Under the pieces are notes generated by a model. The model made no database searches. It worked only from the letters and a program-made list of their open reading frames with translations, and was not told where the DNA came from. Of a stretch of 64,000 nt of DNA, positions 15,752 through 58,925 are shown piece by piece. How positions within the stretch are numbered: position 1 is the stretch's first letter; the number at the start of each line of letters is the position of its first letter. Location of the stretch: the NCBI RefSeq assembly GCF_011682045.1, contig NZ_VVIW01000002.1:62001-126000 (forward strand), given 5' to 3'. Position numbers and translations under genes: made by a program. The stretch comes from Massilia aquatica. GTDB taxonomy: Bacteria > Pseudomonadota > Gammaproteobacteria > Burkholderiales > Burkholderiaceae_D.

Positions 15752-15826
15752 CCGCCTGTCGTTCAACGGATAGGACCTCGCTCTTCTAAAGCGATCATGG
15801 GGGTTCGATTCCCTCCAGGCGGACCA
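15752..15826 (+). tRNA. tRNA-Arg (UCU)
   Basis: A 75-base cloverleaf with acceptor arms CCGCCTG and CAGGCGG, anticodon loop CTTCTAA giving anticodon TCT, T-arm GGTTCGATTCC and encoded CCA. It marks the left edge of an accessory segment; tRNA-Arg(UCU) genes are frequent integration sites, but I found no second copy of its 3' end in the window. Confidence 0.93.
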
Positions 15827-36060: not shown

Positions 36061-36129
36061 TGGCTTCTCCCGTCGCACACGCGGTTGAAAAGCGCACCGG
36101 GATGAACCCCTCCTGGTGCGCGCGGCAGA

Positions 36130-36751: not shown

Positions 36752-38845
36752 TCAGAAGCGCGCCTCCAGCATCGCCCGCACCCAGGTCTTGCCCGGCTGC
36801 GTGGAACGCGTGCCGTAGCTGCCCGCCGCGCCCGCGTAGCTGCGGTTGCTGATCCAGTCATGCCGCAGCGCATTGGTAACGCTCACGCGCAGCTGGAGCT
36901 TGCTGTCCAGTTTCCACAATCCATACATTTCCAGATCGCGCCGGGCCGACGCGTACGTAAATTCATCCTGCGACAGCCGCACGTGGCCGCCGCTGCTGTA
37001 CACGAACGAGGCGCCCGTGGTCAGCGCGCCCACCTTGTAATCGACGCCGGCGGTGGCCGACAAGGGCACTTGCTCGGCCAGTCGGTTGTCCGGCCCCGGC
37101 ACCAGGTCCACGCTCGACCAGTTGCGGCTGACCGACAGGCGCAGGTCCAGCGCGGGAGCGGAAGGTGCCAGCGATTGCAGCGGAAAGCGCGTTTCCACGT
37201 CCAGCGTGCGCACATCGCACTGCCCGCCGTTTTCCGGCCGCAGCAGCCAGCGCCCGCCGGCCAGGTTGAGCGCCTGCACGGTGCAGTCGTCGATGCGGCG
37301 CGCCGCCGCGGCCACCGAAAACAGCGCGCCCTTGGCCCAGTGGTGCTCGTAGGCTGCGTCGATGCCGAGCGCCAGCTCCGGACGCAGGTTCGGATTGCCC
37401 GTGCTGTCGGGGTTCGACGCGCTGTTATTGATGGTCAGGATCGGGCGCGCGATCAGGCGGGCCGCATCTGGCGCCTTGTAGGTGCGGGTGAGCGCCATGC
37501 GCACCTGGTCGCCGCCGGCGCCGGGCAGCTTGTACAGCGTGTGCAAAATGGGGCTCAACACGCTGCTGTCGTTGCGCGCCTCGGTCAATCCACTGCCGCC
37601 GCTGCGCGTGCCGATGCCTTCCCAGCGCGCGCCCAGGTACACCGACCATTGCGGCGTCACGCTCCATTCATCCTGCGTGTACAGCGCCAGCGAACGCAGG
37701 GTGGCCCGATACCGTTCCGGCGCGGCGGCGCTGCCGAAGTCGGACTGTTGCCGGTCGCTCGTATTGCGCGCCACGCTGCCTTCCCAGCCCGCGCCGATGG
37801 TGTGCGCGCCGCCGGAGCGGCCGCTGTACTTGCCGCTGCCACGCAGGGCGCGGTCGCGCGCCAGGCCGTCTGCAACGCGGTCCAGCGTCAGCCAGCCGGA
37901 CGCCGCCTGCGATTGCTGCGCCAGTTCGGTCGCATAGTTGCCCGCGTCGATGCCCAGCTTCGATTCCAGTTTCGCGCTCTCGCCCAGCTTGCGGGTCCAC
38001 ACCACATCGCTGCGCAGCGTGCGCCGGGTGGACGCGGTGACGCTGCCGCTCGCCGGATCGACACGCGGCGCGCCAACAACATAGGTGGTGAGGTGGCGCG
38101 TATCGACATGCAGGCGGTTCGCGTACACGAACGACTGCCAGCTCACGGTATCGCCGTTCCCCAGCGCCCAGTTCAGGCGCGGGGCCAGGTTGAACGTATT
38201 GAAATTGCCCACATCGTCGCCGCGCAGCACGTGCTCGTACAGCGGGCGGCCTTGGGCATCGCCACCCGTTTCGACTGTCGTTACCGGCCGCCGGAAGGTG
38301 TTGCGCGACGCGCTGGCCGCGAGCGAGTACGAAAACGCACCGGCGCGGTCCGAGAGGTTCAGGCTCGCCTTGCCCTCGGCCATGCCGCTCGACGCACCGG
38401 CGCCTGCCTTCCAGTCGCGCTGCGCCTTCGAGACGGCGCGCTTGAGGATCACGTTGATGGTGCCGGCAATGGCGCGCGTGCTGTTGTCGGCGGTGGCCGC
38501 GCGCACCACCTCGATGCGCTCCACCGATTCCGGCGAGACCGAATCGAGCGAAAACCCGGACGGCGCGCGTTCGCCATTGAGCAGGATCTGCGTGTAGCCG
38601 GCGCCCAGGCCGCGCATCTGCGCATTGCCGCCGCTGACGGTCACGCCGGGAACGCGCTTGAGCGTATCGAGCACGCTGGCGTCGCCATAGCGCACCATGT
38701 CGTCGCGGCTGACCACGATCTTGCCCGCCGTGTCGTCGCGCCGCGCGTCGTAGCTTTCGCGGCTGGCGTTCACTTCCACCACCGCAGGCTGGCCATGCGC
38801 CACGCCGGCCGTCAATGCAGGCACGAGCAAAGCCAGCGCCCTCAA
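36752..38845 (-). CDS. TonB-dependent outer-membrane receptor
   Basis: A 697-aa receptor. A short signal peptide (RALALLVPALTAGVAHG) leads into a plug domain (GKIVVSRDDMVRYGDASVLD, VPGVTVSGG, QILLNGERAPSGFSLDSVSP, then INVILKRAV) and a beta-barrel ending in Phe (LEARF). The best start is a TTG whose bases overlap the SDR stop as TTGA; longer in-frame starts would bury the signal peptide. There is no STN signalling domain. Its place as the last gene of the radical SAM-SDR operon suggests it imports or retrieves a compound linked to that pathway. Confidence 0.87.
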   Translation of the reverse strand: MRALALLVPALTAGVAHGQPAVVEVNASRESYDARRDDTAGKIVVSRDDMVRYGDASVLDTLKRVPGVTVSGGNAQMRGLGAGYTQILLNGERAPSGFSLDSVSPESVERIEVVRAATADNSTRAIAGTINVILKRAVSKAQRDWKAGAGASSGMAEGKASLNLSDRAGAFSYSLAASASRNTFRRPVTTVETGGDAQGRPLYEHVLRGDDVGNFNTFNLAPRLNWALGNGDTVSWQSFVYANRLHVDTRHLTTYVVGAPRVDPASGSVTASTRRTLRSDVVWTRKLGESAKLESKLGIDAGNYATELAQQSQAASGWLTLDRVADGLARDRALRGSGKYSGRSGGAHTIGAGWEGSVARNTSDRQQSDFGSAAAPERYRATLRSLALYTQDEWSVTPQWSVYLGARWEGIGTRSGGSGLTEARNDSSVLSPILHTLYKLPGAGGDQVRMALTRTYKAPDAARLIARPILTINNSASNPDSTGNPNLRPELALGIDAAYEHHWAKGALFSVAAAARRIDDCTVQALNLAGGRWLLRPENGGQCDVRTLDVETRFPLQSLAPSAPALDLRLSVSRNWSSVDLVPGPDNRLAEQVPLSATAGVDYKVGALTTGASFVYSSGGHVRLSQDEFTYASARRDLEMYGLWKLDSKLQLRVSVTNALRHDWISNRSYAGAAGSYGTRSTQPGKTWVRAMLEARF

Positions 38846-39582
38846 ACCGCACCGTCGATAACCACCGTCGCTCCGCTCATATAACTGTTCTTGTCCGAGA
38901 CGAAAAACGCCGCCGCTTGCGCCACTTCGTCCACGGTCCCCAGTCGGCCGAGGGCGCAATGGCGCACGTATTCCGTCATCTTCGCCGCCGGCACATTGCC
39001 GCTCACGCCTTCATCGAGCACGCCCGGCGCCAGGCAGTTGACGGTAATGCCATAGCGGCCCACTTCCTTCGCCAGCGCCTCGGTCATGCCCTTGAGCGCC
39101 GCCTTGGCCGCGCTGTAGTGCACCGGCGCCTGCATCATCTTCACGCCCGCCAGCGAGCTGATATTCAGAATCCGCCCGCGCTTCTGGTGGATCATCCCGC
39201 GCAGCACCGCCTGGGTGGTCAAAAAGGCGCCCTTGACGTTGGTGTTCATCATGCGGTCCCAGTCTTCTTCCTCCATCAGCGCGAGCGGCACCACCTGGCC
39301 GATGCCGGCGTTATTGATCAAAATGTCGATCGCCCCAGCATCCTGCTCGATGGCGCGCACCATGCCCTGCAAGCCCGCCTTGTCCAGCACCGACACCTGG
39401 AACGCCCACGCCTTCACGCCCAGTTCCTTGAGCGCCGCCAGGACCGCCTCGGCCTCCGACACCGAACGCGTGTAGTTGAACGCCACGTTGGCGCCTTCGC
39501 GCGCCAGCGCCATGCACAGGGCGCGCCCGAGGCCGCGCGAGCCGCCGGTGACCAATGCGGTCCGTCCGTCGAGCATCCCCAT
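38842..39582 (-). CDS. SDR-family 3-oxoacyl-ACP reductase-like enzyme
   Basis: A 246-aa short-chain dehydrogenase of FabG type. The cofactor loop is TGGSRGLG (about 12-19), NNAGIG follows, and the catalytic Ser-Tyr-Lys set is intact in NISSLAG and VHYSAAKAALKG. The start overlaps the radical SAM stop by one base (TAATG) and its stop overlaps the receptor start. It closely resembles the SDR at 51878-52669, sharing VHYxAAKA, ALAKEVGRYGI and the DENSFMSGA-type end, so the two probably act on related substrates. Confidence 0.9.
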   Translation of the reverse strand: MGMLDGRTALVTGGSRGLGRALCMALAREGANVAFNYTRSVSEAEAVLAALKELGVKAWAFQVSVLDKAGLQGMVRAIEQDAGAIDILINNAGIGQVVPLALMEEEDWDRMMNTNVKGAFLTTQAVLRGMIHQKRGRILNISSLAGVKMMQAPVHYSAAKAALKGMTEALAKEVGRYGITVNCLAPGVLDEGVSGNVPAAKMTEYVRHCALGRLGTVDEVAQAAAFFVSDKNSYMSGATVVIDGAV

Positions 39583-41405
39583 TATTTGAGCACCACTGGT
39601 TTGCCGCCGCCAAGGCCGATCGAATGCGGCGCGCGCGCCGGCGTCTCGTCGACCCCGATCCCGGTCAGCGCCTGGCGCGTGTCGGTGCGGTGGAATTGCA
39701 CGATCTGCACCGGTGCATCCGTGGTCCATGGCTTCTTGCCCCATGCCGCCAGTTCGGTTTCCGGCCCTTTGGCCGCGCCCCGGTGGAACATATTGAAGCC
39801 GCAGGCCGGCATGATGCGCCCGTCCACCTGCGGATAATGGTGGCAGCACTTGCGCAGCCGTTCCAGGTCGAAGTCGTGGCGGTCCATGTAGTGGTGCAAA
39901 AAGATTGACTTGGCCTGCTGCTCGCCGAGGTGGATCGCTTCCTTGGCGCTGACCGGCCGGTTCGGGAACATCACGTCGATGGTGCGGCGCAGGGCGGCCA
40001 GGATGTCGGCCGAGCGCTCGATTTCATCCTGGCGCGCGAATACATCGTGCACCACGTCGCTCATCGCATCGTGAATCTCGGGCGAGGCGCCCAGGGTGGC
40101 CGACGAACGCAGCAAGGTGCCGTGGGTGCGGAAATCGACAAAGCGCCCGAACGGAATGTGGCTGCCGTCGTTCATGCGCAGCAGGTAGCTGAGCGAGACG
40201 CACTGCGGGTGGGAGCAGGGCAGGGGCGCGAAATCGCTCACTTTGAGCTTGCCGTTGGTTTGCTCCTCGATGGCCTTGATCACGCCCGGAATCGTCAGCC
40301 GGTCCATCGGGTCGTGCGCGAACTGCCCGCCACCGGCGCCGGTAAAGGCGACCGGCTGGAAGTTCAGCGACAGGAAGTGGTCTTCGGACAGAAACATCTC
40401 CACCACCTGGCCGATCTGGTGCTCGTTGACGCCGCGCGCGGCCACGAAAATGAGCTGCGTCGGGATGTTGAGGTCCTTGAGCATCTTGAGGGCGGCGCTT
40501 TTCTCGTCGCACAGGTCGCGCCCGCGAATTTTTTCGTGTGTGTCGGCCGTAAAACCGTCGAACTGCAGGGCGATGTAGGCGCCGCTGGCCTTGATTTTCT
40601 CGGCAAAGGCGCGGTCGCGGCCAAGCCGCAAGCCGTTGGTGATGATGACGATGCGGCCGATTTCCTCGCGCGTGGCGATGGCGATCAGTTCCATCAGGCG
40701 CGGGTGGCTGGTCGGCTCGCCGCCGGACAGCGCAATCGACTCCACCTGGCCCTCGTTGCGCACCAGCGTGTCGATCATGCGCGTGAACGCCTCGTTCGAG
40801 AGGTGGTAGGCGTTGGTATTGTTGACGATGCAGACTGGGCATTCGAGGTTGCAGTAGTCGGTGATCTCGATGATCGGCAGGCAGGTATGCTGTTCGTGGT
40901 CGCCGCAGGTGCCGCAGTCGGTCGGGCAGCCTTTGTCCACCTCGGTGGCGAACACCAGCGGCTCGGTGCCGGCGCGCGCGTACGAGTAGGCGTCCACGTA
41001 GTAGGCCGCGTCTTCCGACACCAGCGCCTCGGAGGGGCCGCATTTTTCGCAGTTCTTCACGAAATAGACTTTTCCGTCACGGATTACCACGTCGGCCGGC
41101 AGCAGCGCCAGACACCCCGGACAGGTCGATGTCGTGTGCTTGAAATAGTGGTCGCCTTCTTTTGCCGGGTCCACCTGGCCGCGCGCCAGGAATCCCGCCA
41201 TCCAGCCCTTGGCGTCATCGGACACCACCTGTTCGGAAGGTCCGCACTGGTTGCAGTGGATCAGGCGCACCACGCCATCGTCGCGCAGCACCACGCGCGC
41301 TTCGATCGGCGCGGTGCAGCCGCCGCAAATGGCCATTTCGTGCATGAAGAAAGTGTGCTCGCGATCCTTGCGCACGGTGCTCGTGTCGCAGCTGGTACAT
41401 TCCAT
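39582..41405 (-). CDS. Radical SAM enzyme, Tes/MJ0619-like, with doubled zinc-ribbon-like N-terminus
   Basis: A 607-aa protein. Two Cys pairs make ribbon-like modules at 27-54 (CGGC...CNQC) and 95-122 (CPGC...CEKC). A CPTDCGTC motif (160-167) precedes the radical SAM cluster CNLECPVC (Cys185, Cys189, Cys192), then GGEPTSHP, and a C-terminal RKCCHHYPQVDGRIMPACG. This order matches the family of the tetraether lipid synthase Tes, which joins unactivated lipid carbons; the gene at 57015-58466 is a shorter relative. The reaction here is unknown. AAAGG precedes the start. It is the first gene of a three-gene operon. Confidence 0.85.
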   Translation of the reverse strand: MECTSCDTSTVRKDREHTFFMHEMAICGGCTAPIEARVVLRDDGVVRLIHCNQCGPSEQVVSDDAKGWMAGFLARGQVDPAKEGDHYFKHTTSTCPGCLALLPADVVIRDGKVYFVKNCEKCGPSEALVSEDAAYYVDAYSYARAGTEPLVFATEVDKGCPTDCGTCGDHEQHTCLPIIEITDYCNLECPVCIVNNTNAYHLSNEAFTRMIDTLVRNEGQVESIALSGGEPTSHPRLMELIAIATREEIGRIVIITNGLRLGRDRAFAEKIKASGAYIALQFDGFTADTHEKIRGRDLCDEKSAALKMLKDLNIPTQLIFVAARGVNEHQIGQVVEMFLSEDHFLSLNFQPVAFTGAGGGQFAHDPMDRLTIPGVIKAIEEQTNGKLKVSDFAPLPCSHPQCVSLSYLLRMNDGSHIPFGRFVDFRTHGTLLRSSATLGASPEIHDAMSDVVHDVFARQDEIERSADILAALRRTIDVMFPNRPVSAKEAIHLGEQQAKSIFLHHYMDRHDFDLERLRKCCHHYPQVDGRIMPACGFNMFHRGAAKGPETELAAWGKKPWTTDAPVQIVQFHRTDTRQALTGIGVDETPARAPHSIGLGGGKPVVLK

Positions 41406-41440
41406 GTGAACCTTTCAACGATGATCTACTGGTGTTGGGT

Positions 41441-41462
41441 GTTAGCTTTAGGATATGCTAAC
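41441..41462. promoter_or_regulatory. Dyad in the divergent control region of the biosynthetic cluster
   Basis: GTTAGC (41441-41446) and GCTAAC (41457-41462) form perfect half-sites around ten bases, in the 127-base gap between the divergent radical SAM and FabZ-like genes. The TTAGC/GCTAA half-sites recur in the palindrome next to the ArsR gene at 58954-58969, so this could be an operator for that regulator. Confidence 0.5.
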
Positions 41463-41532
41463 CTGAATTGCATGTGTTGAGTGGCCGTTGAGAGCTACGG
41501 GCGGCAATCGATATGCACAAAGGGCAGCGCGG

Positions 41533-42000
41533 ATGCGATACATACTTCTCGATAAAATTACGGCGCTCCAGCCGCCGCAACTGGCGTCGGGAGTCAAGTG
41601 CGTGTCGCTGTCGGACGATATTTTTGCCGACCATTTTCCGGGTCATCCCATCATGCCCGGCGCGATGATCATCGAATCGATGGCGCAGCTCGGCGGCGTG
41701 CTGGTCGAAGCGAGCATGCGCGAACAGGGCCGGCACGACCTGCACGCGTTGCTGGTCACGGTGGACCGCGCCAAATTCCGCCACCAGGTGCGCGCCGGCG
41801 ACAAGATGGAACTCGAATGCCACGGCATCGTGGTGCACGAAGATGGCGGCCAGGTACGCGCCATGGCGCGCGTGGACGGCAAACTGGTCGCCGAGGCCGA
41901 ACTGGCTTTCGCCTTTGCCCGCGTGACCAATCCCAAGTTGCTGGCGCGGCGCCGCGAGGTGCTCAATATCTGGCTCACCGGCTCGGCCGAGGAGCCATGA
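41533..42000 (+). CDS. FabZ-like 3-hydroxyacyl-ACP dehydratase
   Basis: A 155-aa hotdog-fold protein. The catalytic helix and loop read HFPGHPIMPGAMIIESMAQ, with His34 and Glu48 in the FabZ positions. It would remove water from 3-hydroxyacyl-ACP to give the trans-2-enoyl thioester. The start at 41533 gives the expected N-terminus; an upstream in-frame start adds an unrelated 15 residues. It is the first of 15 tightly packed plus-strand genes, and its stop overlaps the first ketosynthase start as ATGA. There is a housekeeping copy elsewhere in any such genome, so this one is pathway-specific. Confidence 0.9.
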   Translation: MRYILLDKITALQPPQLASGVKCVSLSDDIFADHFPGHPIMPGAMIIESMAQLGGVLVEASMREQGRHDLHALLVTVDRAKFRHQVRAGDKMELECHGIVVHEDGGQVRAMARVDGKLVAEAELAFAFARVTNPKLLARRREVLNIWLTGSAEEP

Positions 42001-43199
42001 CGCAGCCAAGGGTGTTCGTACGTGGCGTCGGCGCCATCACGGCCTTGGGCGCCAACTGGCCCGCCTCGCTGGCGGCGCTGGCCGCCGGGCGCAGCGCCAT
42101 CGGCTCTGTACGCGGCTTCGACGTGACCGGTTTTCCATCCACGGCGGGCGCTGAAATCGACGGCTTTACCCACACCGGCGACCGTCGCCTTGCTCTGTCA
42201 CGGGTCGCTGCGCGCGAGGCGTGGCAGGGCGCCGGCATCGATGTCGCGCCTGAACGCCTCGGTATCTTCCTCGGCGCGGAATCGGGCCGCGCGCCATTTT
42301 CCACCTTGCATGGGCTCACCCGCGGCGCCGGCGGCGGGGCGCGCTTCGACCATGCGCGGTTCGGCGTCGAGGCGGCGGCGCTGGTGGCCGAATTCGACGC
42401 GTCCATCATCTCGCCGGCCGCCGTCACCTCGGCGCTCGCGCTCGAATACGGCGCGCATGGCCCGGCGGTGACGATTTCGCTGGCCTGCGCCTCGGGCGCG
42501 AGCGCGATTGCGGAAGCGGCGCGGGCGATCCGGCTCGGCGTGTGCGATGTCGCCCTGTGCGGTGGCGTGGGCGCCGATGTCGATCCGATGATGCTGGCCG
42601 GTTTCGGCCGCGTCGGCGCATTGAGCGCGCGCGGCGTGTCGTGTCCGTTCGATGTGCGGCGCGACGGTTTTGTGGTGGGCGAGGGCGCCGCCATGGTGGT
42701 GCTGTCGCTTGAGCGCGGGAGTGCGACGGTAGAACTGGCCGGCGAAGGCCGCAGCCTGGATGCGCACCACCTCACAGCACCGGACCCGCAGGGGGATGGC
42801 GCCATCCGTGCCATGCGCACCGCGCTTGCCGCCGCTGGACTCGATGCGGTCGATTACATCCAGGCGCACGGCACCTCGACGCCGCTCAACGACGCCGTTG
42901 AATCAATGGCGCTGCGGCGCGTGCTCGGTGCAAGCCTGGACGCTGCCCATGTCAGCTCGGTCAAAGGGGCGCTTGGTCACTGGATCGCCGGGGCGGGCGC
43001 GCTGGGTTTTCTGTGCGCGCACGCGGCGCTGGTGCAGGGCATTGTGCTGCCGACCGCGAACCTTGTTCAACCCGATCCGGCCTGCGCGCTCCCGCATGTG
43101 ATCGGCGAAGCAGTCCGCGCAAACGTCAATGCGGCCCTGGTCAACGCGTTCGCCTTCGGCGGCGCCAATTGCAGCCTGGTGGCGGGGCGCTGCGCGTGA
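41997..43199 (+). CDS. Beta-ketoacyl-ACP synthase, KS1
   Basis: A 400-aa FabF-type condensing enzyme with the complete triad: nucleophile in SLACASGA (Cys164), QAHGTSTPLND (His291) and VKGALGHW (His328). It also has FDVRRDGFVVGEGAA before the first His. It extends acyl-ACP by decarboxylative condensation with malonyl-ACP. It overlaps its neighbours by ATGA and GTGA. The next gene is a ketosynthase-like protein without the Cys, the layout of a KS/chain-length-factor pair. Confidence 0.92.
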   Translation: MTQPRVFVRGVGAITALGANWPASLAALAAGRSAIGSVRGFDVTGFPSTAGAEIDGFTHTGDRRLALSRVAAREAWQGAGIDVAPERLGIFLGAESGRAPFSTLHGLTRGAGGGARFDHARFGVEAAALVAEFDASIISPAAVTSALALEYGAHGPAVTISLACASGASAIAEAARAIRLGVCDVALCGGVGADVDPMMLAGFGRVGALSARGVSCPFDVRRDGFVVGEGAAMVVLSLERGSATVELAGEGRSLDAHHLTAPDPQGDGAIRAMRTALAAAGLDAVDYIQAHGTSTPLNDAVESMALRRVLGASLDAAHVSSVKGALGHWIAGAGALGFLCAHAALVQGIVLPTANLVQPDPACALPHVIGEAVRANVNAALVNAFAFGGANCSLVAGRCA

Positions 43200-46619: not shown

Positions 46620-47350
46620 AAACCGCACTCGTTACCGGTGGCTCGCGCGGCATCGGCGCCGCCATTGTGCTCGCACTGGCGGGCAAGGGCTTTACCGTCA
46701 TTCTCAACTACCGCAGCGACGAAGCGGCCGCCGCCAGGGTGGCCGAACAGGTGGCGGCTATCGGCGGCGAATGTCATCTCGCACGCGCCGACGTGTCCGA
46801 CGTGGCGCAGGTCGACGCGCTGTTCGCCGATATCGACAGCCGCTTCGGCCAGCTCGATGCCCTCGTCTGCAACGCCGGCGTGCTGCGCGACACGCTGCTC
46901 GGCGCCAGCGAGCCGGCTGATTTCGACGATGTCTTCTCGGTGAACATCTCGGGCGTGGTCAATTGCTGCCGCCAGGCCTCGCGCCGCATGGTGTCGCGCC
47001 GGTGCGGGGTGATCGTCAACATGTCGTCGGTGGCGGCCACGCGTCCGGGTCGGGGCCAGAGCAATTACGCCGCGTCCAAAGGCGCCGTCGAAGCGTTCAC
47101 CAAAGCGCTTGCGGTCGAACTGGCCCCGCGCGGCATTCGCGTCAACGCGGTGGCGCCGGGCGTGATCGAGACCGACATGACGCGCGATATCCGGGCGCTG
47201 GCTCAAGAAGAACTGAACAAGCGCATCCTGCTCAAGCGCGTCGGCAGCGCGCAGGAAGTCGCCGCCGTCGTCGCCTTCCTGTGCAGCGACGAGGCCAGCT
47301 ACGTCACCGCGCAGGTATGGAATGTGGATGGAGGATTCAAGGCAGAATGA
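46616..47350 (+). CDS. FabG-like 3-oxoacyl-ACP reductase
   Basis: A 244-aa SDR with the full FabG set: [11 protein letters not shown] at the N-terminus, [15 protein letters not shown], the Tyr-Lys pair in [21 protein letters not shown] and a late [14 protein letters not shown]. It would reduce the 3-oxo group made by the ketosynthases, using NADPH, before dehydration by the FabZ-like enzyme. It overlaps CLF2 and the nitroreductase gene by ATGA. Confidence 0.94.
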
Positions 47351-48435: not shown

Positions 48436-48439
48436 CGCC

Positions 48440-51881: not shown

Positions 51882-52669
51882 ACCATGAAACGGACCACCC
51901 TGTGACTGACTTCGACACCTCCGCGCCGCCATTGCGGCTGGCGGGAAAACGCTGCCTGGTGACTGGCGGCTCGCGCAACCTGGGCCGCGCCATCTGCCTG
52001 GCCTTCGCCGCCGCCGGTGCGCGCGTGGCGTTCACCTATATAAAAGACGACGAGCAGGTCGAAGTCACCCGCGCCATGCTGCGCGAACTCGGCGCCGAGC
52101 CGCTGGTGTTCAAGGGATCGGTGACCGATGCGGCCCACGCCCGCAGCGCGGTCAACGCCATCGTCGCCGAATGGGAAGGGCTCGACATCCTCGTCAACAA
52201 CGCCGGCGTGATGCAGGTGCTCCCGATCGCCTTGCTGGAAGAAGACGACTGGGACCTGGTGCTCGATACCTGCCTGAAAGGCGCTTACATTTTTTCGCGC
52301 GCCGCGCTGCGGCCCATGCTGCGGGCAAAAAAAGGGCATATCCTGAACATCGGCTCGATTGCCGGCGAGCGGATAGTGGAGTCGCCCGTGCATTACGCGG
52401 CAGCCAAAGCCGGCCTGCAGGGCTTCACGCGGGCGCTGGCCAAGGAAGTGGGGCGCTACGGGATCGCAGTCAACGACCTGTCGGCCGGCCTGCTGGAGGC
52501 GGGCATGGGCCAGCAGGCGCCCCAGTACCGGCTGGACGACTACACCACGCACTGCCCGCTGGGGCGTACCGCCACGCTGGAGGAAACCGCCGCTTTCGTC
52601 ACCTGGCTGGTGTCGGACGAGAACAGCTTCATGAGCGGCGCGCGCCTGACCTTCGACGGAGGCCTGTAA
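51878..52669 (+). CDS. SDR-family oxidoreductase
   Basis: A 263-aa short-chain dehydrogenase with TGGSRNLGRAI, NNAGVM, the Ser in NIGSIAG and the Tyr-Lys pair in VHYAAAKAGLQG, then ALAKEVGRYGI. It is closely similar to the SDR at 38842-39582, sharing this block and the closing DENSFMSGA. The first 15 residues before the fold look variable; the ATGA overlap with the radical SAM stop supports the chosen start. A 3-oxoacyl or related ketone is the likely substrate. Confidence 0.9.
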   Translation: MNHETDHPVTDFDTSAPPLRLAGKRCLVTGGSRNLGRAICLAFAAAGARVAFTYIKDDEQVEVTRAMLRELGAEPLVFKGSVTDAAHARSAVNAIVAEWEGLDILVNNAGVMQVLPIALLEEDDWDLVLDTCLKGAYIFSRAALRPMLRAKKGHILNIGSIAGERIVESPVHYAAAKAGLQGFTRALAKEVGRYGIAVNDLSAGLLEAGMGQQAPQYRLDDYTTHCPLGRTATLEETAAFVTWLVSDENSFMSGARLTFDGGL

Positions 52670-53967
52670 TGGACCCGCTCCTGCACGAGGGATACGATGG
52701 TTTTCGCGCTTTCGTCAATCCGCTGGTGGCAATGCGCGCGCGCCTGAGCAGCGAACCATATCTGCTCGAGCGCGTGGAGCACGGCCACCTGATCGACAAC
52801 GACGGCAAAGCGTACATCGACCTGCTGGCCGGCTGGGGCACGCAGGCGTTCGGCCATCGTCCGCCGGCCATCGAGGCGGCGCTGATGAACTTCCTCAAAG
52901 GCCGCGCGCCGTCGTTCTACCCATCCGGCATCAGCCCGCACGCTGGGTTACTGGCCGGCCGCTTGTACGAACGGACTGGCTACGACGCGGCCTTTTTCGC
53001 CAGTGGAGGCACCGAAGCGGTGGAGGCGGCGCTCAAGCTGGTGCGCGGCGCCAGCGGCAGGCCGCGCATCGCCTGCGTCCAGGGCGCGTACCACGGCTGC
53101 ACCTTCGGCAGCGTGGCGATGATGCAGGCCGGCCCGTACCGCGACATCTTCGGCCCGCATTTGCCGATGGTCGACGCGCTGCCGTTCGGCGAGATGGAGG
53201 CGCTCGACAATGCGCTGGCCGATCCGTCGCTGGCCGCCATCGTGCTCGAACCGATCCAGGTCGAAGCCGGCGTGCGCCTGCATGACGCGGCGTATCTGGC
53301 GCGCCTGTGCCACGGCACGGGTGAGCGCGGCGTTCTGCTGGTGGCCGACGAAATCCAGACCGGCCTCGGACGCACCGGGCGCTTTTTGTCGAGCGAGGCA
53401 TGGCCTCGCCGGCCCGACGTGGTCACCCTGGGCAAAGCGCTGGGCGGCGGCTTGATGCCGCTGTCGGTGATGCTGACGCGCCGCCCGATTTTTGACGGCG
53501 TGTACGGCAAATTCGCGCTGGCCGAGGCGCATGCGTCCACCTTCAGCGGCAACGCGCTCGCCTGCGTGGCCGGCCTGGCGGCACTCGACCTGCTGGACGA
53601 CGCCATGCTGGCCGATGTGGAACGCAAGGGCCGCCTGCTGCGCGATGCGCTGGACGACGTCGTCCTGCCGTCGCCACTGGTCAGGGCGATTCGCGGCGAA
53701 GGCCTGATGCTGGGCATCGAGCTGGAAGCGCCGGATCATCCGTGCTACCAGTTCGACTACCTGGGCGTGCCCGAACTGGCGGCGCAGCCGGCCATCGGGA
53801 TGCTGCTGGTGCACCGGCTGTACAAGGCCGGCTACATCTCGCAGATTTGCGGGCACGCGTGGCAGGTGCTGCGCGTGCAGCCATCTTTTACGATCTCCGA
53901 CGACGAACTGCTGGCGTGCGTGCACGCGCTGCGCGATGCACTCGACTTCTTGTGGGACCTTCAATGA
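52669..53967 (+). CDS. Class III PLP-dependent aminotransferase, AT2
   Basis: A 432-aa aminotransferase with IDLLAGWGTQAFGHRPP, ASGGTEAVEAALKLVRG, YHGCTFGS, VADEIQTGLGRTG and the Schiff-base Lys256 in LGKALGGG. It differs from AT1 in length and N-terminus, so the two may act at opposite ends of the molecule or form a heteromeric pair. The start overlaps the SDR stop by one base (TAATG), and its stop overlaps the next gene by ATGA. Confidence 0.9.
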   Translation: MDPLLHEGYDGFRAFVNPLVAMRARLSSEPYLLERVEHGHLIDNDGKAYIDLLAGWGTQAFGHRPPAIEAALMNFLKGRAPSFYPSGISPHAGLLAGRLYERTGYDAAFFASGGTEAVEAALKLVRGASGRPRIACVQGAYHGCTFGSVAMMQAGPYRDIFGPHLPMVDALPFGEMEALDNALADPSLAAIVLEPIQVEAGVRLHDAAYLARLCHGTGERGVLLVADEIQTGLGRTGRFLSSEAWPRRPDVVTLGKALGGGLMPLSVMLTRRPIFDGVYGKFALAEAHASTFSGNALACVAGLAALDLLDDAMLADVERKGRLLRDALDDVVLPSPLVRAIRGEGLMLGIELEAPDHPCYQFDYLGVPELAAQPAIGMLLVHRLYKAGYISQICGHAWQVLRVQPSFTISDDELLACVHALRDALDFLWDLQ

Positions 53968-54665
53968 AACGCGTTCTTGTACTGGGCGGCAGCGGCGCCC
54001 TCGGCTCGGCCCTGCTGCGCGAACTGAAACGCAGCGGCGCCGATGTGGCCTTTACCTACTGCCGCCGCGCGGAGCTTGCCGCCGCCCTCGGCGAGGAACT
54101 TGGCTTCCCGGCTTACGCCGCCGATTTCGAGCAGGCCGACGCGGTCGATTTGCTGTTCGATGCGCTCGCGCGCGACGAGCGCCTGCCGGACGTCGTGATT
54201 CACTGCGCCGGCGTGGCGCCGGTCGCCTTGCTCGGTGCGGTGACGGCGGCGTCGTGGGACGCCGTGCATGCGGTGCACGGACGCGCCGCGCTGCTGTGCG
54301 CGCAGCAGATGGCGCGGCGCGGCCTGCGCGGTGCGCTGGTGCTGGTCGCCGCCCTCGATGGTGTGCAGCCGGTACCCGCGCCCGCGCATTACGCAGCCAG
54401 TCAGGCCGCCATGTGGGGCCTGACCATGGCGCTGGCCAAGGAACTCGGCCCCAAGGGCATCCTGGTCAATCTGGCGGTGGTGGGCGTGCTCGATGGCGGC
54501 ATTGCGCAAGCGCTCGACCCGAAGCTGCGCGAATCCTACCGGCGCTATGCCGCGCTGGGCCGCACCGGCACCTGCCTTGAGGCCGCGCGCGGCCTGCGCT
54601 GGCTCGCGCTGGAGAATACCTACCTGAACGGCGCCCAGTTCCCGCTCACGGGCGGCTTGGGATGA
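53964..54665 (+). CDS. Degenerate SDR-family protein (catalytic residues missing)
   Basis: A 233-aa Rossmann protein with GGSGALGSALL at the N-terminus and an SDR outline, including HCAGVAP and LALENTYLNGAQFPLTGGLG at the end. The active-site pattern is changed: the Ser strand reads LVLVAALDG, and the Tyr-Lys motif reads HYAASQAA, so Tyr143 remains but Lys is Gln147 and Ser is Ala. It is probably not a normal dehydrogenase and may bind cofactor or partner with the active SDR upstream. It overlaps AT2 and the next gene by ATGA. Confidence 0.83.
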   Translation: MKRVLVLGGSGALGSALLRELKRSGADVAFTYCRRAELAAALGEELGFPAYAADFEQADAVDLLFDALARDERLPDVVIHCAGVAPVALLGAVTAASWDAVHAVHGRAALLCAQQMARRGLRGALVLVAALDGVQPVPAPAHYAASQAAMWGLTMALAKELGPKGILVNLAVVGVLDGGIAQALDPKLRESYRRYAALGRTGTCLEAARGLRWLALENTYLNGAQFPLTGGLG

Positions 54666-55198
54666 AGCGAGCCGGCGGTGTCTGTATGCTGCTGTTGCTG
54701 GCCGTCCTGGCGGTGCAGAAGACGCAGGACGGGCTGGCGCCCGAACTGCTGTGGATGTGCCACGTCACCAGCACCATGCTGGCACTGGGCCTGCTCGCCA
54801 ATGCCGCGCCGCTGATCGTCACCGGTTTCCTGTGCCAGGGTGCGATCGCCTTGCCGGCCTACGTGCTGCATGTGGCGGCCGGCGGCCATACCTCGGTCGC
54901 CTCGTTCCTGCTGCATGCATCGGCCCCGGTGCTGGGGGCGCTGGCATGGCGCGGCAAGCGCATTCCCGCCGCGATTCCGTGGGTCGCGCTGGCGCTCTAC
55001 CAGCTGCTTGTTGTGCTCAGCCAGGATTTCACGCCAGAGAGCATGAACGTCAACCTGGCGTTTCGCCCGTGGGACCCGCTGTCAGGCTTTCTTCCCTCTG
55101 GCTGGCCGGTACGGCTATTGAACCTGGCGCTGATGCTGGCGCAGTTGCAGGCGGCGCGCTGGCTCTGGAACCGCAGCGTGCCTGCCACCGCTAGCTGA
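54662..55198 (+). CDS. Small polytopic membrane protein
   Basis: A 178-aa protein with about five hydrophobic segments (7-19, 30-58, 64-74, 81-96 and 105-120), a less hydrophobic loop containing QDFTPESMNVNLAF, and a final segment near 150-165. No family is recognised. It overlaps the preceding gene by ATGA and ends the 15-gene operon. Its end overlaps the convergent flippase-like gene by eight bases. Confidence 0.72.
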   Translation: MKRAGGVCMLLLLAVLAVQKTQDGLAPELLWMCHVTSTMLALGLLANAAPLIVTGFLCQGAIALPAYVLHVAAGGHTSVASFLLHASAPVLGALAWRGKRIPAAIPWVALALYQLLVVLSQDFTPESMNVNLAFRPWDPLSGFLPSGWPVRLLNLALMLAQLQAARWLWNRSVPATAS

Positions 55199-56195
55199 AC
55201 ACCTTGGGCAGCTTCCACGCGCCCGCCAGGCGGAACTCGCGCGCCAGCACCACTGCGCCGGGAACGGCCACCAGATACCAGCACAAGACGCGCAAGGTCA
55301 CCGCCACGGCCATGCCCTGCGGCGTGAGCGCGGGGTCGAGCATGTAGCTGGTCGCCACCTCGGCCACGCCGATCGCGCCCGGCACCGGCGCCAGGTAGGC
55401 AATCATCAGGCTGGTCGAGAAGATGGTCAGCGCTTGCAGCCAGGTCAGCGCAAAGCCGAAGTGGGTGGCGAGCAGCCAGCCGATCGCCACGTAGGTCAGC
55501 AAAAAAACCACCGACGCCAGATGGCACACCAGATGCTGCACGTCGGTCGACTTGCCGATGGCGGATATGGCATGCGCGCTCTGGCCGACGCCGAGCAGGG
55601 TCTTTTGCCACAAGCCGCCATTTTTCATTGCGCCGGCGCGCCGTTCGGTCCAGCGCATCACCGGTCCCGGAAAAAACGCCATCAGCGCGAGCAGCAGCGC
55701 AATGCCCAGCAACGGCGCGGTGAGCAGCGGCAAGCCGGCCTGCAACGGTGCCGGCAGGGGAACGGCGTGGCCGAAGGTGAGGGTGACGCACGAGACCAGG
55801 CAAATCCACAAGGTCATGTAGATGCTCTTGCTGACCGACGCCGCCAGCGCATGCGGCATCGGCACGCCCTGGCGCCCGAGCACGAACATCATGGCGGGGG
55901 TGTGCAGTTCGGCGCTGGGCGTGATGCTGGTGACGAAGTAGCTCACGCAGGTCAGGCGCAGGCCCTGCGCAAAGCGCAGCGGGTGGCCGAGCACCGCGAG
56001 CATGCTGCGCAGGCGGATCCAGTCCAGCATGTAGAACAGGCAGGTCAGGACGGCAAGGCCGAGCCACAGGGGCAGTGGAATGGTGCCGATCAGGGCCACC
56101 ACGCCACCCAGGCTGGCGCCGCTGGCATGCGAGAAAAAGCGCGCGGTCAGGTAGACGGTCAGCGCGAACAAGACGGCGAACAGGATTTTTTTCAA
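55191..56195 (-). CDS. Flippase-like membrane protein (LPG synthase TM family)
   Basis: A 334-aa protein with about eight membrane segments. The region SITPSAELHTPAMMFVLGR and the later YLAPVPGAIGVAEVATSYML match the UPF0104/LPG_synthase_TM pattern, whose members are linked to lipid or polyprenol transport. The start is a TTG that overlaps the phospholipase C-like stop as TTGA. It is the last gene of the right-hand operon and implies that the product or its precursor is membrane-bound. Confidence 0.83.
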   Translation of the reverse strand: MKKILFAVLFALTVYLTARFFSHASGASLGGVVALIGTIPLPLWLGLAVLTCLFYMLDWIRLRSMLAVLGHPLRFAQGLRLTCVSYFVTSITPSAELHTPAMMFVLGRQGVPMPHALAASVSKSIYMTLWICLVSCVTLTFGHAVPLPAPLQAGLPLLTAPLLGIALLLALMAFFPGPVMRWTERRAGAMKNGGLWQKTLLGVGQSAHAISAIGKSTDVQHLVCHLASVVFLLTYVAIGWLLATHFGFALTWLQALTIFSTSLMIAYLAPVPGAIGVAEVATSYMLDPALTPQGMAVAVTLRVLCWYLVAVPGAVVLAREFRLAGAWKLPKVFS

Positions 56196-56857
56196 GAGGG
56201 TCGGGTCGCTTCGATGAAGGTCAGGTAGACCGCCGCCAGGTGGCCGGCGGCGGTGGGGATGATCTGTTCGGCCTGGGCGGCGAATTCGGCGCGCGTGAGC
56301 GAGCGGCGCAGGCCCAGTCGCTTGAGCAGGCGCCCCCAGTGGTGGTTGGTGCGGTCGGGCGCGAAGCGCTGCGTGAAGGCGGCCAGGCCGGCGGCGGCAT
56401 CGTGCGCGCTGGCATACTGGCGCGGCACGTCGAAGGGCAGTGCCGCCAGTTGCGCGCCATTGGCTTCGACGTACCATTCGTAGCCGTCGGTCAGGTGCGC
56501 CACGCGGCTGGCGTGGACCGGGCATGCCATGTCGATGACGAGGTGCGATGCCATCCCCAGTTGCACGAAGGCGCGCGCATGCTGGCCGGCGCGCCATGCC
56601 GTCACTGCGCTGTCGACATAGTCCTGCGTCCTGGCCGGTGCGCTGGCCGTCAGGAAGGGAATGAAGCCGCCGGCGAGATGGCGGCCGGCGAAGTGGCTGA
56701 GCGACCAGTGCTCCCAGATTTTGCCGCGGCGCGGCAGGTACGTTACGTCTTCGCGGATCGCGCCCAGCACCAGCGCATCGTGGAAGCGGTTGAACCACGC
56801 GTCGTCGAGTTTACCCACGGCCAGGCCGATCACCAGCTGCAAACCGTTGTATCTCAC
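56192..56857 (-). CDS. Zinc-dependent phospholipase C-like protein
   Basis: A 221-aa mostly helical protein. The metal-binding pattern of zinc phospholipase C/S1-P1 nucleases is visible: HDALVLGAIREDV near 26-38, HWSLSHF near 50-56, and ASHLVIDMACPVHASRV near 103-119 (His, Asp, His). There is no evident signal peptide, unlike secreted phospholipases. The start is GTG, overlapping the 54-aa gene's stop as GTGA, and its stop overlaps the flippase-like start. A role in releasing or trimming a lipid product is plausible. Confidence 0.78.
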   Translation of the reverse strand: MRYNGLQLVIGLAVGKLDDAWFNRFHDALVLGAIREDVTYLPRRGKIWEHWSLSHFAGRHLAGGFIPFLTASAPARTQDYVDSAVTAWRAGQHARAFVQLGMASHLVIDMACPVHASRVAHLTDGYEWYVEANGAQLAALPFDVPRQYASAHDAAAGLAAFTQRFAPDRTNHHWGRLLKRLGLRRSLTRAEFAAQAEQIIPTAAGHLAAVYLTFIEATRPS

Positions 56858-57018
56858 TGTTCGACCGGCGTCTGGTAGCGCGCCAGCAGGGCAAGCAGCT
56901 CACCGTAGTGGCGCCGGCCGCCATGGTCCTGGCAGAACTGCGCGATATGGGCGAGGAACAGGGGAATGGCTTCCTCGGGCAGGTCGAGCGCGCGCAGGAT
57001 GTCGTGCCGGTCGTTCAT
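56854..57018 (-). CDS. 54-aa small protein between a radical SAM and a phospholipase-like gene
   Basis: This small gene has a start overlapping the radical SAM stop as ATGA and a stop overlapping the next start as GTGA, which makes it very likely translated. The product starts MNDRHDILRALDLP and is acidic to neutral and helical, with ALDLPEEAIPLFLAHIAQF as an amphipathic segment. It has a single Cys and no leader or core-peptide look, so a RiPP precursor is less likely than a small partner protein. Family unknown. Confidence 0.72.
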   Translation of the reverse strand: MNDRHDILRALDLPEEAIPLFLAHIAQFCQDHGGRRHYGELLALLARYQTPVEQ

Positions 57019-58466
57019 GCGACCGTCAGCCTGCCGCTGCCCAGGGTGGCCACCGGTGCACCCGGCGCCACCGAAAAGCGGGTGTCGCGGTCGCGGTACA
57101 GGATGTTGTAGGCGCAGGAAGGCACATTGCGCCCGTCCGGCTCGCGAATGCCCACGCAGCACTGGCGTATACGGTCGGTATCGAAGGTTTCTTCATCCAT
57201 GTGCGAGTGCACGTAGATCGCTTTGGAACTCTGCTCGCCGATGCGCATGCGCTGCTCGGTCGAGAGGCCCGGTGCGAACATGCGCGCCAGCAGGCCTTTA
57301 AGGGTGGCCAGGATCATGTCGCTGTCGGGGCTTTCCATCTCACCGGCCCACAGGCGCGTGATCACGTCCTGCAGGCGCAGTTCCACCTGCGGCGTCGGTT
57401 CCAGGTACAAGGTGCCGGTCAGCAGGGCGCGCAGGTCGGCGCGTTCCATGAAGCGGGTGAACGGGAGCCAGCGGCCGTCGTCCAGGCGCAGCATGTAGGT
57501 GATCAGGTAGCACATCGGATGGCTCGACGGCGACGGCACGAAGTCGCTGATGCGCAGCGCGCCCCCGGTCTGCTGTTCCAGGTCGGCCAGCACGTCGTAG
57601 GTGGTGTAGCGCCCGCGCCGGTCGAAGCGCGAGCCGCCCTGGCCGGTGAAGGTCATCGTGTGCAGTTCGACGCTGCGGATGAAGTCCTTTTCCAGCGCCA
57701 GTCTGACAAAGGCGCCCACTTCATGGTCGTTGCTGCCGCGCGCCAGCACCGGCAGCAGGGTGGTGTCGACCTTGTGCTTTTCGAGCAGGGCCAGCACCCG
57801 CATCTTCGCCTGGTAGAAATTCCCGCCCAACATGTCGATATTCGTTCCCGGCGTGAACGAGTCAAACGACAGCACGATGCGCGCGTCCAGCGCGGCCAAC
57901 CGTTCGAGCAGCCATTCATCCTTGAGAAAACGCAGGCCGTGGGTGGAGATGGTGATGCGGTTGATGCCTTCGGCGTGGCACAGTTCCACCAGCCGCTCGA
58001 AGTCGGGGTGCTGGGTCGGTTCGCCGCCGGTCAGGTTGATCATGCGGTTGCTCGGGTCGGCCCGCCGCATGTGCCCGAGGATGGCGCGCAGCTGGTCCTG
58101 CGACATGTGGAACGCGCCTTCGTTGCGGTTGTGCGTGTAGCAGATCGGGCAATCGAGGTTGCAGGCCGAGGTAATCGGCACGATCGGCAGCAGGACCTGC
58201 TGTTCGTGGCTGGTGCATGGGCCGCAGTCGAACGGGCAGCCCTGGCTGGCCGGCGCGGCGCCGGAAGGCGGCGTGAGAATCGGCGCCTCATTCATCGTGG
58301 CGTCGTACCAGGCGGCGTTGGACGAGACGATGACTTCTTCGGAGCCGTGCTGCGGGCAGCGCTTGCGCATGACCACGCGGCCCTCGCTGCGCCAGATGGC
58401 GGCGTCCACGCTGCGTTTGCAGGTCGAACACAGGCTTGTCGTTGCACGTACCAGTTCGTCGCTCAT
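57015..58466 (-). CDS. Radical SAM enzyme, Tes/MJ0619-like
   Basis: A 483-aa protein built like the one at 39582-41405 but with one ribbon module: CSTC (13-16) with CPQH (37-40), then CPFDCGPC (77-84), the radical SAM cluster CNLDCPIC (Cys102, Cys106, Cys109), NLTGGEPTQHP, and a C-terminal RQCCVGIREPDGRNVPSCAY. The shared C-terminal CC...DGR..P.C pattern makes the two paralogues. It heads the right-hand operon with the 54-aa protein, the phospholipase C-like and the flippase-like genes. The substrate is likely a lipid or acyl chain by family analogy. Confidence 0.87.
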   Translation of the reverse strand: MSDELVRATTSLCSTCKRSVDAAIWRSEGRVVMRKRCPQHGSEEVIVSSNAAWYDATMNEAPILTPPSGAAPASQGCPFDCGPCTSHEQQVLLPIVPITSACNLDCPICYTHNRNEGAFHMSQDQLRAILGHMRRADPSNRMINLTGGEPTQHPDFERLVELCHAEGINRITISTHGLRFLKDEWLLERLAALDARIVLSFDSFTPGTNIDMLGGNFYQAKMRVLALLEKHKVDTTLLPVLARGSNDHEVGAFVRLALEKDFIRSVELHTMTFTGQGGSRFDRRGRYTTYDVLADLEQQTGGALRISDFVPSPSSHPMCYLITYMLRLDDGRWLPFTRFMERADLRALLTGTLYLEPTPQVELRLQDVITRLWAGEMESPDSDMILATLKGLLARMFAPGLSTEQRMRIGEQSSKAIYVHSHMDEETFDTDRIRQCCVGIREPDGRNVPSCAYNILYRDRDTRFSVAPGAPVATLGSGRLTVA

Positions 58467-58571
58467 TGAGATCCACTTGGCAAATGCCGGACCAATCCGG
58501 CGGTGTGCTGTGATTGTAATGGCAACGCTCTCAATCGCAAAGCGGCGATCGCGGAAGGTTTATTCCTTTGC

Positions 58572-58925
58572 TTACTCCTTGACCGCCTTCTTGCGCGCCA
58601 GTGCGCGGCTTTCTTGCTTGAGCTCTTGCGATACCGGACATACCGCCTGCATGAACGAGGCGAGTGTATTTGCCAGGTTGTCGCCCTGCAGGCGGTAGAA
58701 CACGAACTGCCCGCGCTTGTCGCTGGCGATCAGGCCTGCCGATTCGAGAATGCGCAGGTGCTTCGACAGCGATGGCTTGGTCATCTCGAAGCGCGTCGCG
58801 ATGTCGCCCGCCGACAGCTCCGTTTCGGACAGGTAGGCCAGGATTTTGCGGCGCGGCGCCGATGCCAGGGCGGCGAAGATTTGATCCATGATGTACGGTG
58901 CGCCTGCTGGACGGTAAAGCGCCAT
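58572..58925 (-). CDS. ArsR-family transcriptional regulator
   Basis: A 117-aa winged-helix repressor. The region QIFAALASAPRRKILAYL (in parts), ELSAGDIATRFEMTKPSLSKHLRILE and RGQFVFYRLQ is the ArsR core. No Cys metal-site pair is apparent in the recognition helix, so the effector is probably not arsenite. The start could also be the Met at 58889. A palindrome at 58954-58969 lies upstream, between this gene and the divergent DCC-family gene, and is its likely own operator. Confidence 0.87.
   Translation of the reverse strand: MALYRPAGAPYIMDQIFAALASAPRRKILAYLSETELSAGDIATRFEMTKPSLSKHLRILESAGLIASDKRGQFVFYRLQGDNLANTLASFMQAVCPVSQELKQESRALARKKAVKE

What the first reader, a model, noticed from the sequence alone, without database searches (positions are those of the whole stretch)
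36752..58925. Unfamiliar chain-building cluster that couples type II KS/CLF pairs with three radical SAM enzymes
Three operons hold two KS/CLF-like pairs, dehydratase, reductase, long ACP, nitroreductase, two class III aminotransferases, several SDRs, two Tes-like and one SPASM-like radical SAM enzyme, a phospholipase C-like and a flippase-like membrane protein, with an ArsR gene at the edge. Almost all junctions overlap by 1-4 bases, so it is one functional unit. Aryl polyene marker genes (ammonia-lyase, AMP ligase, exporter) are absent, as is any visible phosphopantetheinyl transferase. The combination suggests a new nitrogen-containing, membrane-associated lipid or polyene.
Basis: partly seen in the sequence, partly recalled or inferred. 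Interest (0 to 1): 0.87.

Follow-up and report, generated by a model that had tools for sequence, protein, structure and literature searches.

The report
Undescribed radical-SAM lipid-like biosynthesis gene cluster
A set of twenty genes shared by cold-loving Massilia and soil myxobacteria seems to build a fatty-acid-like chain, add nitrogen to it and join carbons with enzymes related to the archaeal tetraether-lipid maker; the product is unknown and can now be tested.

Summary
Twenty genes (38842-58466) encode two ketosynthase/chain-length-factor pairs, a dehydratase, four SDRs (one the likely ketoreductase), a nitroreductase, a long ACP, two class III aminotransferases, two Tes-like and one SPASM radical SAM enzyme, a flippase-like protein, a zinc-PLC-fold protein and two membrane proteins. 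The flanking TonB and ArsR genes do not belong. All five fetched Massilia relatives with the cluster keep all twenty genes in order. Much of the set, rearranged or split, recurs in Polyangium, a Sorangium MAG, other deltaproteobacterial MAGs, a gammaproteobacterial MAG and betaproteobacterium GR16-43. In 240 genomes of Polyangium's class, CLF2 occurs only with close rS1 (14 within 17) and rS2 only with rS1-like genes (24 within 33), though 5 of the 17 lack rS2. So the genes are co-inherited, with AT1-rS2 optional. Best reading: a type II acyl-chain builder feeds aminotransferases and Tes-like enzymes that couple unactivated carbons, giving an amine-bearing, lipid-like product. Shown: parts, active sites, co-inheritance. 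Inferred: every reaction and the product. rS1 and rS3 have His where Tes has Met439; rS3 also lacks Tyr459. No description appeared in the open-access paper listings seen.

The parts
38842..39582 (-). SDR1, FabG-like short-chain dehydrogenase, directly downstream of rS1
   Evidence: adh_short 1.1e-58; rS1->SDR1 adjacent in 29 of 31 stretches holding both; YxxxK kept in the window copy
39582..41405 (-). rS1, Tes-like radical SAM enzyme with a doubled N-terminal rubredoxin/zinc-ribbon knuckle
   Evidence: PF04055 5.7e-22, Zn_ribbon_HMPTM 8.7e-18; solved Tes 7tol 1.9e-65; NCBIfam Tes 272.0 bits, below cut-off 450; doubled knuckle
41406..41532 (.). 127-base divergent region between rS1 and DH; presumed promoters
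   Evidence: spacing; promoter role inferred
41533..42000 (+). DH, FabZ-like dehydratase
   Evidence: NF000582 115.3 bits, cut-off 113
41997..43199 (+). KS1, ketosynthase with Cys-His-His
   Evidence: ketoacyl-synt 1.7e-29; Cys, His, His in 16 of 16 rows
43196..44212 (+). CLF1, chain-length-factor-like partner without catalytic Cys
   Evidence: ketoacyl-synt 1.8e-08; no Cys in 18 rows
44209..45477 (+). KS2, second ketosynthase with Cys-His-His
   Evidence: Ketoacyl-synt_C 3.1e-34
45474..46619 (+). CLF2, second chain-length-factor-like partner without Cys
   Evidence: ketoacyl-synt 1.2e-21; no Cys in 17 rows
46616..47350 (+). KR, FabG-like ketoreductase
   Evidence: adh_short_C2 1.3e-66
47347..48021 (+). 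NTR, nitroreductase-family flavoprotein, candidate enoyl/enone reductase
   Evidence: PF00881 8.7e-34; weak match to enone reductase CLA-ER 4qlx 1.9e-5, other nitroreductases better
48022..48435 (+). ACP, 137-aa acyl carrier protein with Ser motif GAESLDFLD
   Evidence: PF00550 4.5e-09
48440..49492 (+). MEM1, multi-helix membrane protein with conserved His pairs
   Evidence: no Pfam match; alignment of 12; AF2 pLDDT 73, no PDB fold match at E 0.001
49489..50856 (+). AT1, class III aminotransferase nearest the PigE family model
   Evidence: PF00202 1.9e-90; PigE model 430.4 bits, cut-off 850
50844..51881 (+). rS2, radical SAM/SPASM enzyme paired with AT1 (start may be 50832)
   Evidence: PF04055 8.7e-21, PF13186 1.7e-06; AT1->rS2 adjacent in 13 of 14 stretches holding both
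51878..52669 (+). SDR2, FabG-like SDR
   Evidence: adh_short_C2 7.4e-55
52669..53967 (+). AT2, second class III aminotransferase
   Evidence: PF00202 3.3e-74
53964..54665 (+). SDR3, degenerate SDR; catalytic Lys lost in 23 of 27 rows
54662..55198 (+). MEM2, small membrane protein
   Evidence: no Pfam match; 16 rows including one duplicate
55191..56195 (-). LPGTM, flippase-like LPG-synthase TM protein
   Evidence: PF03706 3.3e-21; TIGR00374 46.9 bits, cut-off 43.2
56192..56857 (-). PLC, zinc phospholipase C fold protein
   Evidence: phmmer 8cqm 2.7e-4; AF2 pLDDT 86, best PDB fold match 2fgn E 4.2e-4, TM 0.69
57015..58466 (-). rS3, second Tes-like radical SAM enzyme, without the Tes tyrosine
   Evidence: 7tol 2.7e-60; NCBIfam Tes 241.6 bits, cut-off 450

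Best explanation
A horizontally spread biosynthetic unit of 20 genes. Two KS/CLF pairs with KR, DH and one ACP build acyl chains; NTR may act as enoyl/enone reductase. The class III aminotransferases put nitrogen on the chain, probably at an ACP-bound beta-keto or an aldehyde position, with SDR1 and SDR2 as reductases. The Tes-like rS1 (with SDR1) and rS3 make C-C bonds at unactivated carbons; rS2 makes a further radical change linked to AT1. MEM1, MEM2, the flippase-like and PLC-like proteins handle a membrane-bound product. The product is most likely an amine-bearing, lipid-like molecule with C-C-coupled alkyl carbons. Shown here: parts, active sites, most cofactor ligands, co-inheritance. 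Inferred: every reaction, the order of steps, and the product.
For: Families. All 20 genes in one order in 5 of 5 fetched carrier relatives; 6 of 17 genus genomes carry both rS1 and rS3. Order kept across phyla: KS1->CLF1 15 of 15, CLF2->KR 16 of 16, KR->NTR 19 of 19, rS1->SDR1 29 of 31, AT1->rS2 13 of 14. Co-occurrence: CLF2 in 14 of 240, all within the 17 with close rS1; rS2 in 24 of 240, all within the 33 with rS1-like. rS1 distances track 14 other cluster proteins, r 0.40-0.92. KS1, CLF1 and CLF2 are separate groups, KS2 in 22 of 24 rows. KS1's best solved matches are FabF enzymes (1j3n 1.3e-59), ahead of actinorhodin KS (1.1e-41), which fits a fatty-acid-like chain. Tes radical SAM and N-auxiliary ligands kept in the window's rS1 and rS3. 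Precedents: Tes joins sp3 carbons of lipid chains (PMC9433317, passages); class III AmcC aminates a keto group on ACP (PMC10698177, passages). Lipid hints: flippase-like protein, PLC fold, FA_hydroxylase/AGMO-C gene in the gammaproteobacterial cluster with similar ORFs near five others.
Against: No thioesterase, ligase or acyltransferase in the Massilia copy, so release and head-group steps are unexplained. rS2 is missing (E 1e-60) from 9 of the 33 rS1-like genomes, 5 of them among the 17 with close rS1, so AT1-rS2 is optional. Outside Massilia, PLC was found in only 3 fetched sets, so a membrane role may not be general. rS1 and rS3 fall below NCBIfam's Tes cut-off and have His for Met439, so another radical reaction is possible. 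rS1-AT1 distance correlation is weak (r 0.40; 39 of 999 permutations as high), and shared species history alone would give some correlation.
Confidence: 0.5

Rival explanations
1. A soluble specialised metabolite (antibiotic-like or cispentacin-like cyclic amino acid): KS/CLF makes a short chain, aminotransferases make amino groups, radical SAM enzymes close rings.
For: Matches to the cispentacin models AmcF (KS2 205.4 bits, KS1 157.6), AmcE (DH 43.6) and AmcB (ACP 20.0); class III aminotransferase precedent AmcC; patchy distribution typical of specialised metabolism.
Against: All these matches lie far below curated cut-offs (325, 140, 80); no adenylating enzyme or thioesterase among the 19 proteins scanned with Pfam; Tes-like radical SAM enzymes; membrane proteins.
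Confidence: 0.25
2. A polyene or polycyclic hydrocarbon lipid (aryl-polyene-like or ladderane-like), the radical SAM enzymes cyclising an unsaturated chain.
For: KS/CLF, DH, KR, ACP content; anammox ladderane candidates also combine many FabF paralogues with radical SAM genes (PMC2649909, passages); antiSMASH gave an APE-Ec match of 36% in M. frigida DJPM01 (PMC10213415, passages; which locus is not stated in the passages seen).
Against: No ammonia-lyase, AMP ligase or phytoene-desaturase-like family among the 19 proteins scanned with Pfam; a nitroreductase that may reduce double bonds; two aminotransferases.
Confidence: 0.15
3. The nearby genes are unrelated operons brought together by chance.
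For: In single-contig genome G527 the rS1, rS2 and AT2 modules lie near 3.26, 9.02 and 10.29 Mb; rS2 is missing from 5 of 17 genomes with close rS1.
Against: Even where split they co-occur; 20 of 20 genes kept in all five Massilia relatives fetched.
Confidence: 0.03

Closest known systems
Archaeal tetraether lipid synthase Tes (GDGT-MAS, PDB 7TOL)
   Same: Aligned over rubredoxin, N-auxiliary, radical SAM and C-auxiliary regions; radical SAM Cys, N-auxiliary Cys and His, and the SHxxC, CC and PxC cysteines of the C-terminal region kept in the window's rS1 and rS3 (which C-terminal Cys are ligands was not in the passages seen)
   Different: His at the Met439 place; Tyr459 absent in rS3; fourth rubredoxin ligand Cys instead of His in close rS1 orthologues; second N-terminal knuckle; sits with a type II chain builder
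Cispentacin type II PKS-like cluster (amcB-H)
   Same: KS with Cys-less partner, hot-dog protein, ACP, class III aminotransferase
   Different: No AmcH-like ligase or AmcD-like thioesterase found; two KS/CLF pairs; three radical SAM enzymes; scores below AmcB/E/F cut-offs
Aryl polyene clusters
   Same: KS/CLF-like pairs, DH, KR, ACP (recalled)
   Different: No ammonia-lyase, AMP ligase or exporter family found; radical SAM enzymes and aminotransferases instead (marker list from the finding and recall)
Anammox ladderane candidate clusters (PMC2649909, passages)
   Same: FabF paralogues, some with altered active sites, beside radical SAM genes
   Different: No phytoene-desaturase-like family found; Tes-like radical SAM plus aminotransferases; sequences not compared
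Prodigiosin aminotransferase PigE (NF053554)
   Same: Best NCBIfam match of AT1 and AT2; best PDB match of both is 4ppm, listed only as 'Aminotransferase' (that it is PigE is recalled)
   Different: Only the C-terminal half of the model is matched; 430 and 295 bits against a cut-off of 850

Membership tests
Tes (NF045702) | Score over NCBIfam equivalog cut-off 450 | tested here: not met
   rS1 272.0, rS3 241.6 bits
Tes (NF045702) | Radical SAM CX3CX2C cysteines | tested here: met
   34 of 34 rS1 rows and 33 of 33 rS3 rows, each set with one duplicate row
Tes (NF045702) | N-auxiliary cluster Cys x3 and His | tested here: met
   34 of 34 rS1 rows; 32 of 33 rS3 rows (one has Tyr for the third Cys)
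Tes (NF045702) | C-terminal auxiliary cluster cysteines | tested here: inconclusive
   SHxxC, first Cys of CC and PxC kept in 34 of 34 rS1 rows; second Cys of CC lost in several rS3 rows; which Cys ligate was not in the passages seen
Tes (NF045702) | Labile Met439 ligand | tested here: not met
   His at the aligned place in 32 of 34 rS1 rows and 33 of 33 rS3 rows; its loss (M439A) left Tes active (PMC9433317, passage)
Tes (NF045702) | Tyr459 | tested here: inconclusive
   kept in 32 of 34 rS1 rows; absent in all 32 readable of 33 rS3 rows
Tes (NF045702) | Joins two alkyl chain ends | not testable with these tools
   needs enzyme assay
Type II KS/CLF synthase | Catalytic KS paired with Cys-less partner | tested here: met
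   KS1->CLF1 15 of 15, KS2->CLF2 16 of 17
Aryl polyene cluster | Ammonia-lyase, AMP ligase, exporter | tested here: not met
   none among the 19 proteins scanned with Pfam
Cispentacin cluster | AmcB, AmcE, AmcF models over cut-off | tested here: not met
Cispentacin cluster | Adenylating AmcH and thioesterase AmcD | tested here: not met
   no such Pfam family among 19 scanned
Ladderane candidate cluster | Phytoene-desaturase-like enzymes | tested here: not met
   none among 19 scanned
Ladderane candidate cluster | Orthology to the Kuenenia genes | not tested
   no anammox sequence fetched

The most novel reading that the evidence does not exclude
A dedicated bacterial route to amino-headed, membrane-spanning or C-C-stapled lipids: KS/CLF pairs build the two halves, aminotransferases make amino ends, and Tes-like enzymes join the alkyl chains. 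It would be a lipid class shared by psychrophilic Massilia and myxobacteria and passed between phyla as a set.
Probability: 0.25. Interest if true: 0.9.

Novelty: new variant of a known kind. Interest (0 to 1): 0.72.

Why it matters
Hundreds of bacterial Tes homologues are known (456 reported in PMC8941075, passages) and were proposed there to serve bacterial tetraether lipids. Here Tes-like enzymes sit in a compact, conserved unit with their own chain builder and aminotransferases, in cultured strains, which suggests another use for part of that family and makes it testable by one deletion and mass spectrometry. Two Tes-like subfamilies that differ at Tyr459, a residue discussed in the Tes mechanism paper, are also useful for enzymology.

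Tried and rejected
MEM1: the AlphaFold2 model (pLDDT 73) gave no PDB match better than E 0.37; function left open. Plasmid-borne spread: only two distant matches (33% and 29% identity) at E 1e-40 in 72,556 plasmid records; no support. ArsR as cluster regulator: beside the cluster in 3 of 5 relatives; rejected as a conserved part. TonB receptor: matched in 1 of 5; rejected. A RiPP pathway was not searched for; the carrier protein and KS/CLF genes make it unlikely. Paper searches listed no description of this cluster; several listings were cut (15 of 22 shown, 12 of 21, 12 of 30, 8 of 108), and subscription papers and cluster databases were not searched. Literature seen: listings and abstract starts for those shown; passages only of PMC8941075, PMC2649909, PMC9433317, PMC10213415, PMC9028926, PMC10698177 and PMC8436480.

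The hypergeometric values (4e-20, 6e-26) ignore relatedness of genomes and are not used as probabilities. The trees are quick trees with long-branch warnings and many open forks; the rS1 group has support 25 only. Rows dropped: hits covering under 60% of the query; under 35%; the duplicate Gam0 row (it is still); rS1/rS3 rows under 380 residues; KS/CLF rows under 250. One search kept one row per taxon and left out the five other Massilia. Two of the 24 KS2 rows (a type I PKS piece of G013 and a second Baikal row) fall outside the KS2 group.

Full report
Observation. The window lies in a 7.47 Mb, 99-contig genome. The 20 genes from SDR1 to rS3 were identified by Pfam (19 of 20) and NCBIfam (19 of 20). 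Junctions on the + strand are tight: 11 of 14 overlap by 1-4 bases. The cluster's G+C is 67.7% against 62.9% for the rest of the window.

Boundaries. The five Massilia relatives fetched hold the same 20 genes in the same order. TonB was matched in one of them and ArsR in three. Of 17 genus genomes, 6 (own included) have rS1 and rS3; the other 11 have neither, though G010 has one distant solo-type match and G006 is only 48% complete. The six are also those with a close CLF2.

Relatives elsewhere. A scan of genome contigs with rS1 gave 31 loci, 27 of them at 51% identity or more in the best segment: four Massilia, four Polyangium, a Sorangium MAG, deltaproteobacterial, myxococcal and Pseudomonadota MAGs, a gammaproteobacterial MAG and GR16-43; four weak ones (25-32%) were set aside. 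The gammaproteobacterial MAG is nearly collinear: DH-KS1-CLF1-KS2-CLF2-KR-NTR, then ACP-MEM1-AT1, then rS2-SDR2-AT2-SDR3-MEM2-rS1-SDR1-rS3, with a type I restriction-modification system between NTR and ACP and no LPGTM or PLC found. In Polyangium 15x6 the chain builder, rS1 and rS3 lie within about 25 kb, AT1-rS2 on another contig and AT2 on two others; in single-contig G527 the three modules lie near 3.26, 9.02 and 10.29 Mb. More distant sets in the same class have rS1 at 39-43%: in G395 and G503 one KS2-like gene was seen (with a CLF1-like gene in G395), in G432, G509, G549 and G568 no KS in the stretch fetched.

Unit test. In the 240 genomes drawn from the class of Polyangium, 33 have an rS1-like match at 1e-90 and 17 of these at 57% or more. 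CLF2 (1e-30) is in 14, all inside the 17; the three without it are G456, G342 and G504. rS2 (1e-60) is in 24, all inside the 33; nine lack it, five of them among the 17 (G337, G338, G344, G456, G500). So the AT1-rS2 module is optional or lost in some. Several genomes are MAGs, so absences are soft. Adjacency over stretches holding both genes: DH->KS1 16 of 16, KS1->CLF1 15 of 15, CLF1->KS2 17 of 18, KS2->CLF2 16 of 17, CLF2->KR 16 of 16, KR->NTR 19 of 19, NTR->ACP 16 of 20, rS1->SDR1 29 of 31, AT1->rS2 13 of 14, SDR2->AT2 14 of 15, AT2->SDR3 18 of 19, rS3->SDR2 12 of 19 (in none of the six Massilia). Massilia rS1 and rS3 both sit next to the gammaproteobacterial MAG and then near Sorangium or other myxobacteria, against species relationships, which suggests transfer as a set (quick tree; inference).

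Enzymes. KS1 keeps Cys, His, His in 16 of 16 rows and KS2 in 24 of 24. CLF1 (18 rows) and CLF2 (17 rows) have no Cys at the site. The four proteins form separate groups, so the two pairs are not a recent duplication. KS1's best solved matches are FabF enzymes. rS1 and rS3 are separate from each other and from a third, solo Tes-like group found in Burkholderiales, including one copy in this genome (support for the rS1 group is only 25). Against the Tes structure paper (PMC9433317, passages) the radical SAM cysteines are kept in all rows, the N-auxiliary Cys and His in 34 of 34 rS1 and 32 of 33 rS3 rows. At the place of Met439 stands His in 32 of 34 rS1 and 33 of 33 rS3 rows; the paper found M439A still active. 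Tyr459 is kept in 32 of 34 rS1 rows and absent from all 32 readable rS3 rows. Places were read by hand from the alignments. Close rS1 orthologues have a second upstream knuckle: by pattern in 20 of 21 distinct close rows, three of them starting at other cysteines, against 0 of 12 others. SDR3 has lost the YxxxK lysine in 23 of 27 rows, so it may be a non-catalytic partner.

Mechanism. The type II set can make reduced or partly reduced chains; NTR resembles flavin reductases, among them the enone reductase CLA-ER at 1.9e-5, though other nitroreductases score better. Class III aminotransferase AmcC aminates a keto group on ACP (PMC10698177, passages), a direct precedent for AT1 and AT2. Tes joins sp3 carbons of lipid chains, the precedent for rS1 and rS3. 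rS2 belongs to the SPASM group and its best solved match is cytosylglucuronate decarboxylase (3.2e-11), so decarboxylation is one candidate. PLC has the zinc phospholipase C fold, as in Bacillus cereus PLC and clostridial alpha-toxin; no toxin role is suggested. M. antarctica polar lipids include an unidentified aminolipid and nine unidentified lipids (PMC9028926, passages): compatible, not specific.

Limits. No reaction or product is shown. No release enzyme is visible in the Massilia copy. The cluster was not compared with a curated cluster collection. The most novel reading, stapled amino lipids, stands at about one in four.

Noticed in passing
G000:C3:66943-68295 (L056): A third, solo Tes-like radical SAM gene in the same genome, about 32% identical to rS1; with nine Burkholderiales homologues it forms its own group and no other cluster gene was matched within the 20 kb fetched.
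   Followed up: partly
L097:1657-9093: Type I restriction-modification genes with a BRO-N and an AAA protein between NTR and ACP in the gammaproteobacterial MAG.
   Followed up: no
L097:15888-17057; similar ORFs in L103, L102, L101, L106, L088: FA_hydroxylase with an alkylglycerol-monooxygenase C-terminal domain beside non-Massilia cluster genes (similarity; Pfam run on the L097 copy only).
   Followed up: partly
L103, L102, L061, L122, L112, L090, L096, L100: A second rS3-like paralogue (46-48% identity), with SDR2, AT2 and SDR3 beside it in most of these stretches; not seen in the Massilia clusters.
   Followed up: partly
window 53964-54665: SDR3 is a conserved SDR without the catalytic lysine in 23 of 27 rows.
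   Followed up: partly
G000:C21:14518-24616: An ACPS-family match and a class III aminotransferase match in an 856-residue frame within about 10 kb, possibly a prodigiosin cluster (recalled; not examined).
   Followed up: no
window 20044-22353, 24868-28326, 31614-34103, 34636-36078: Molybdopterin oxidoreductase, CheB/CheR-PAS fusion, TonB receptor and a DyP_N-type protein upstream of the cluster.
   Followed up: no
window 15567-15826: tRNA-Pro(tgg) and tRNA-Arg(tct) genes.
   Followed up: no
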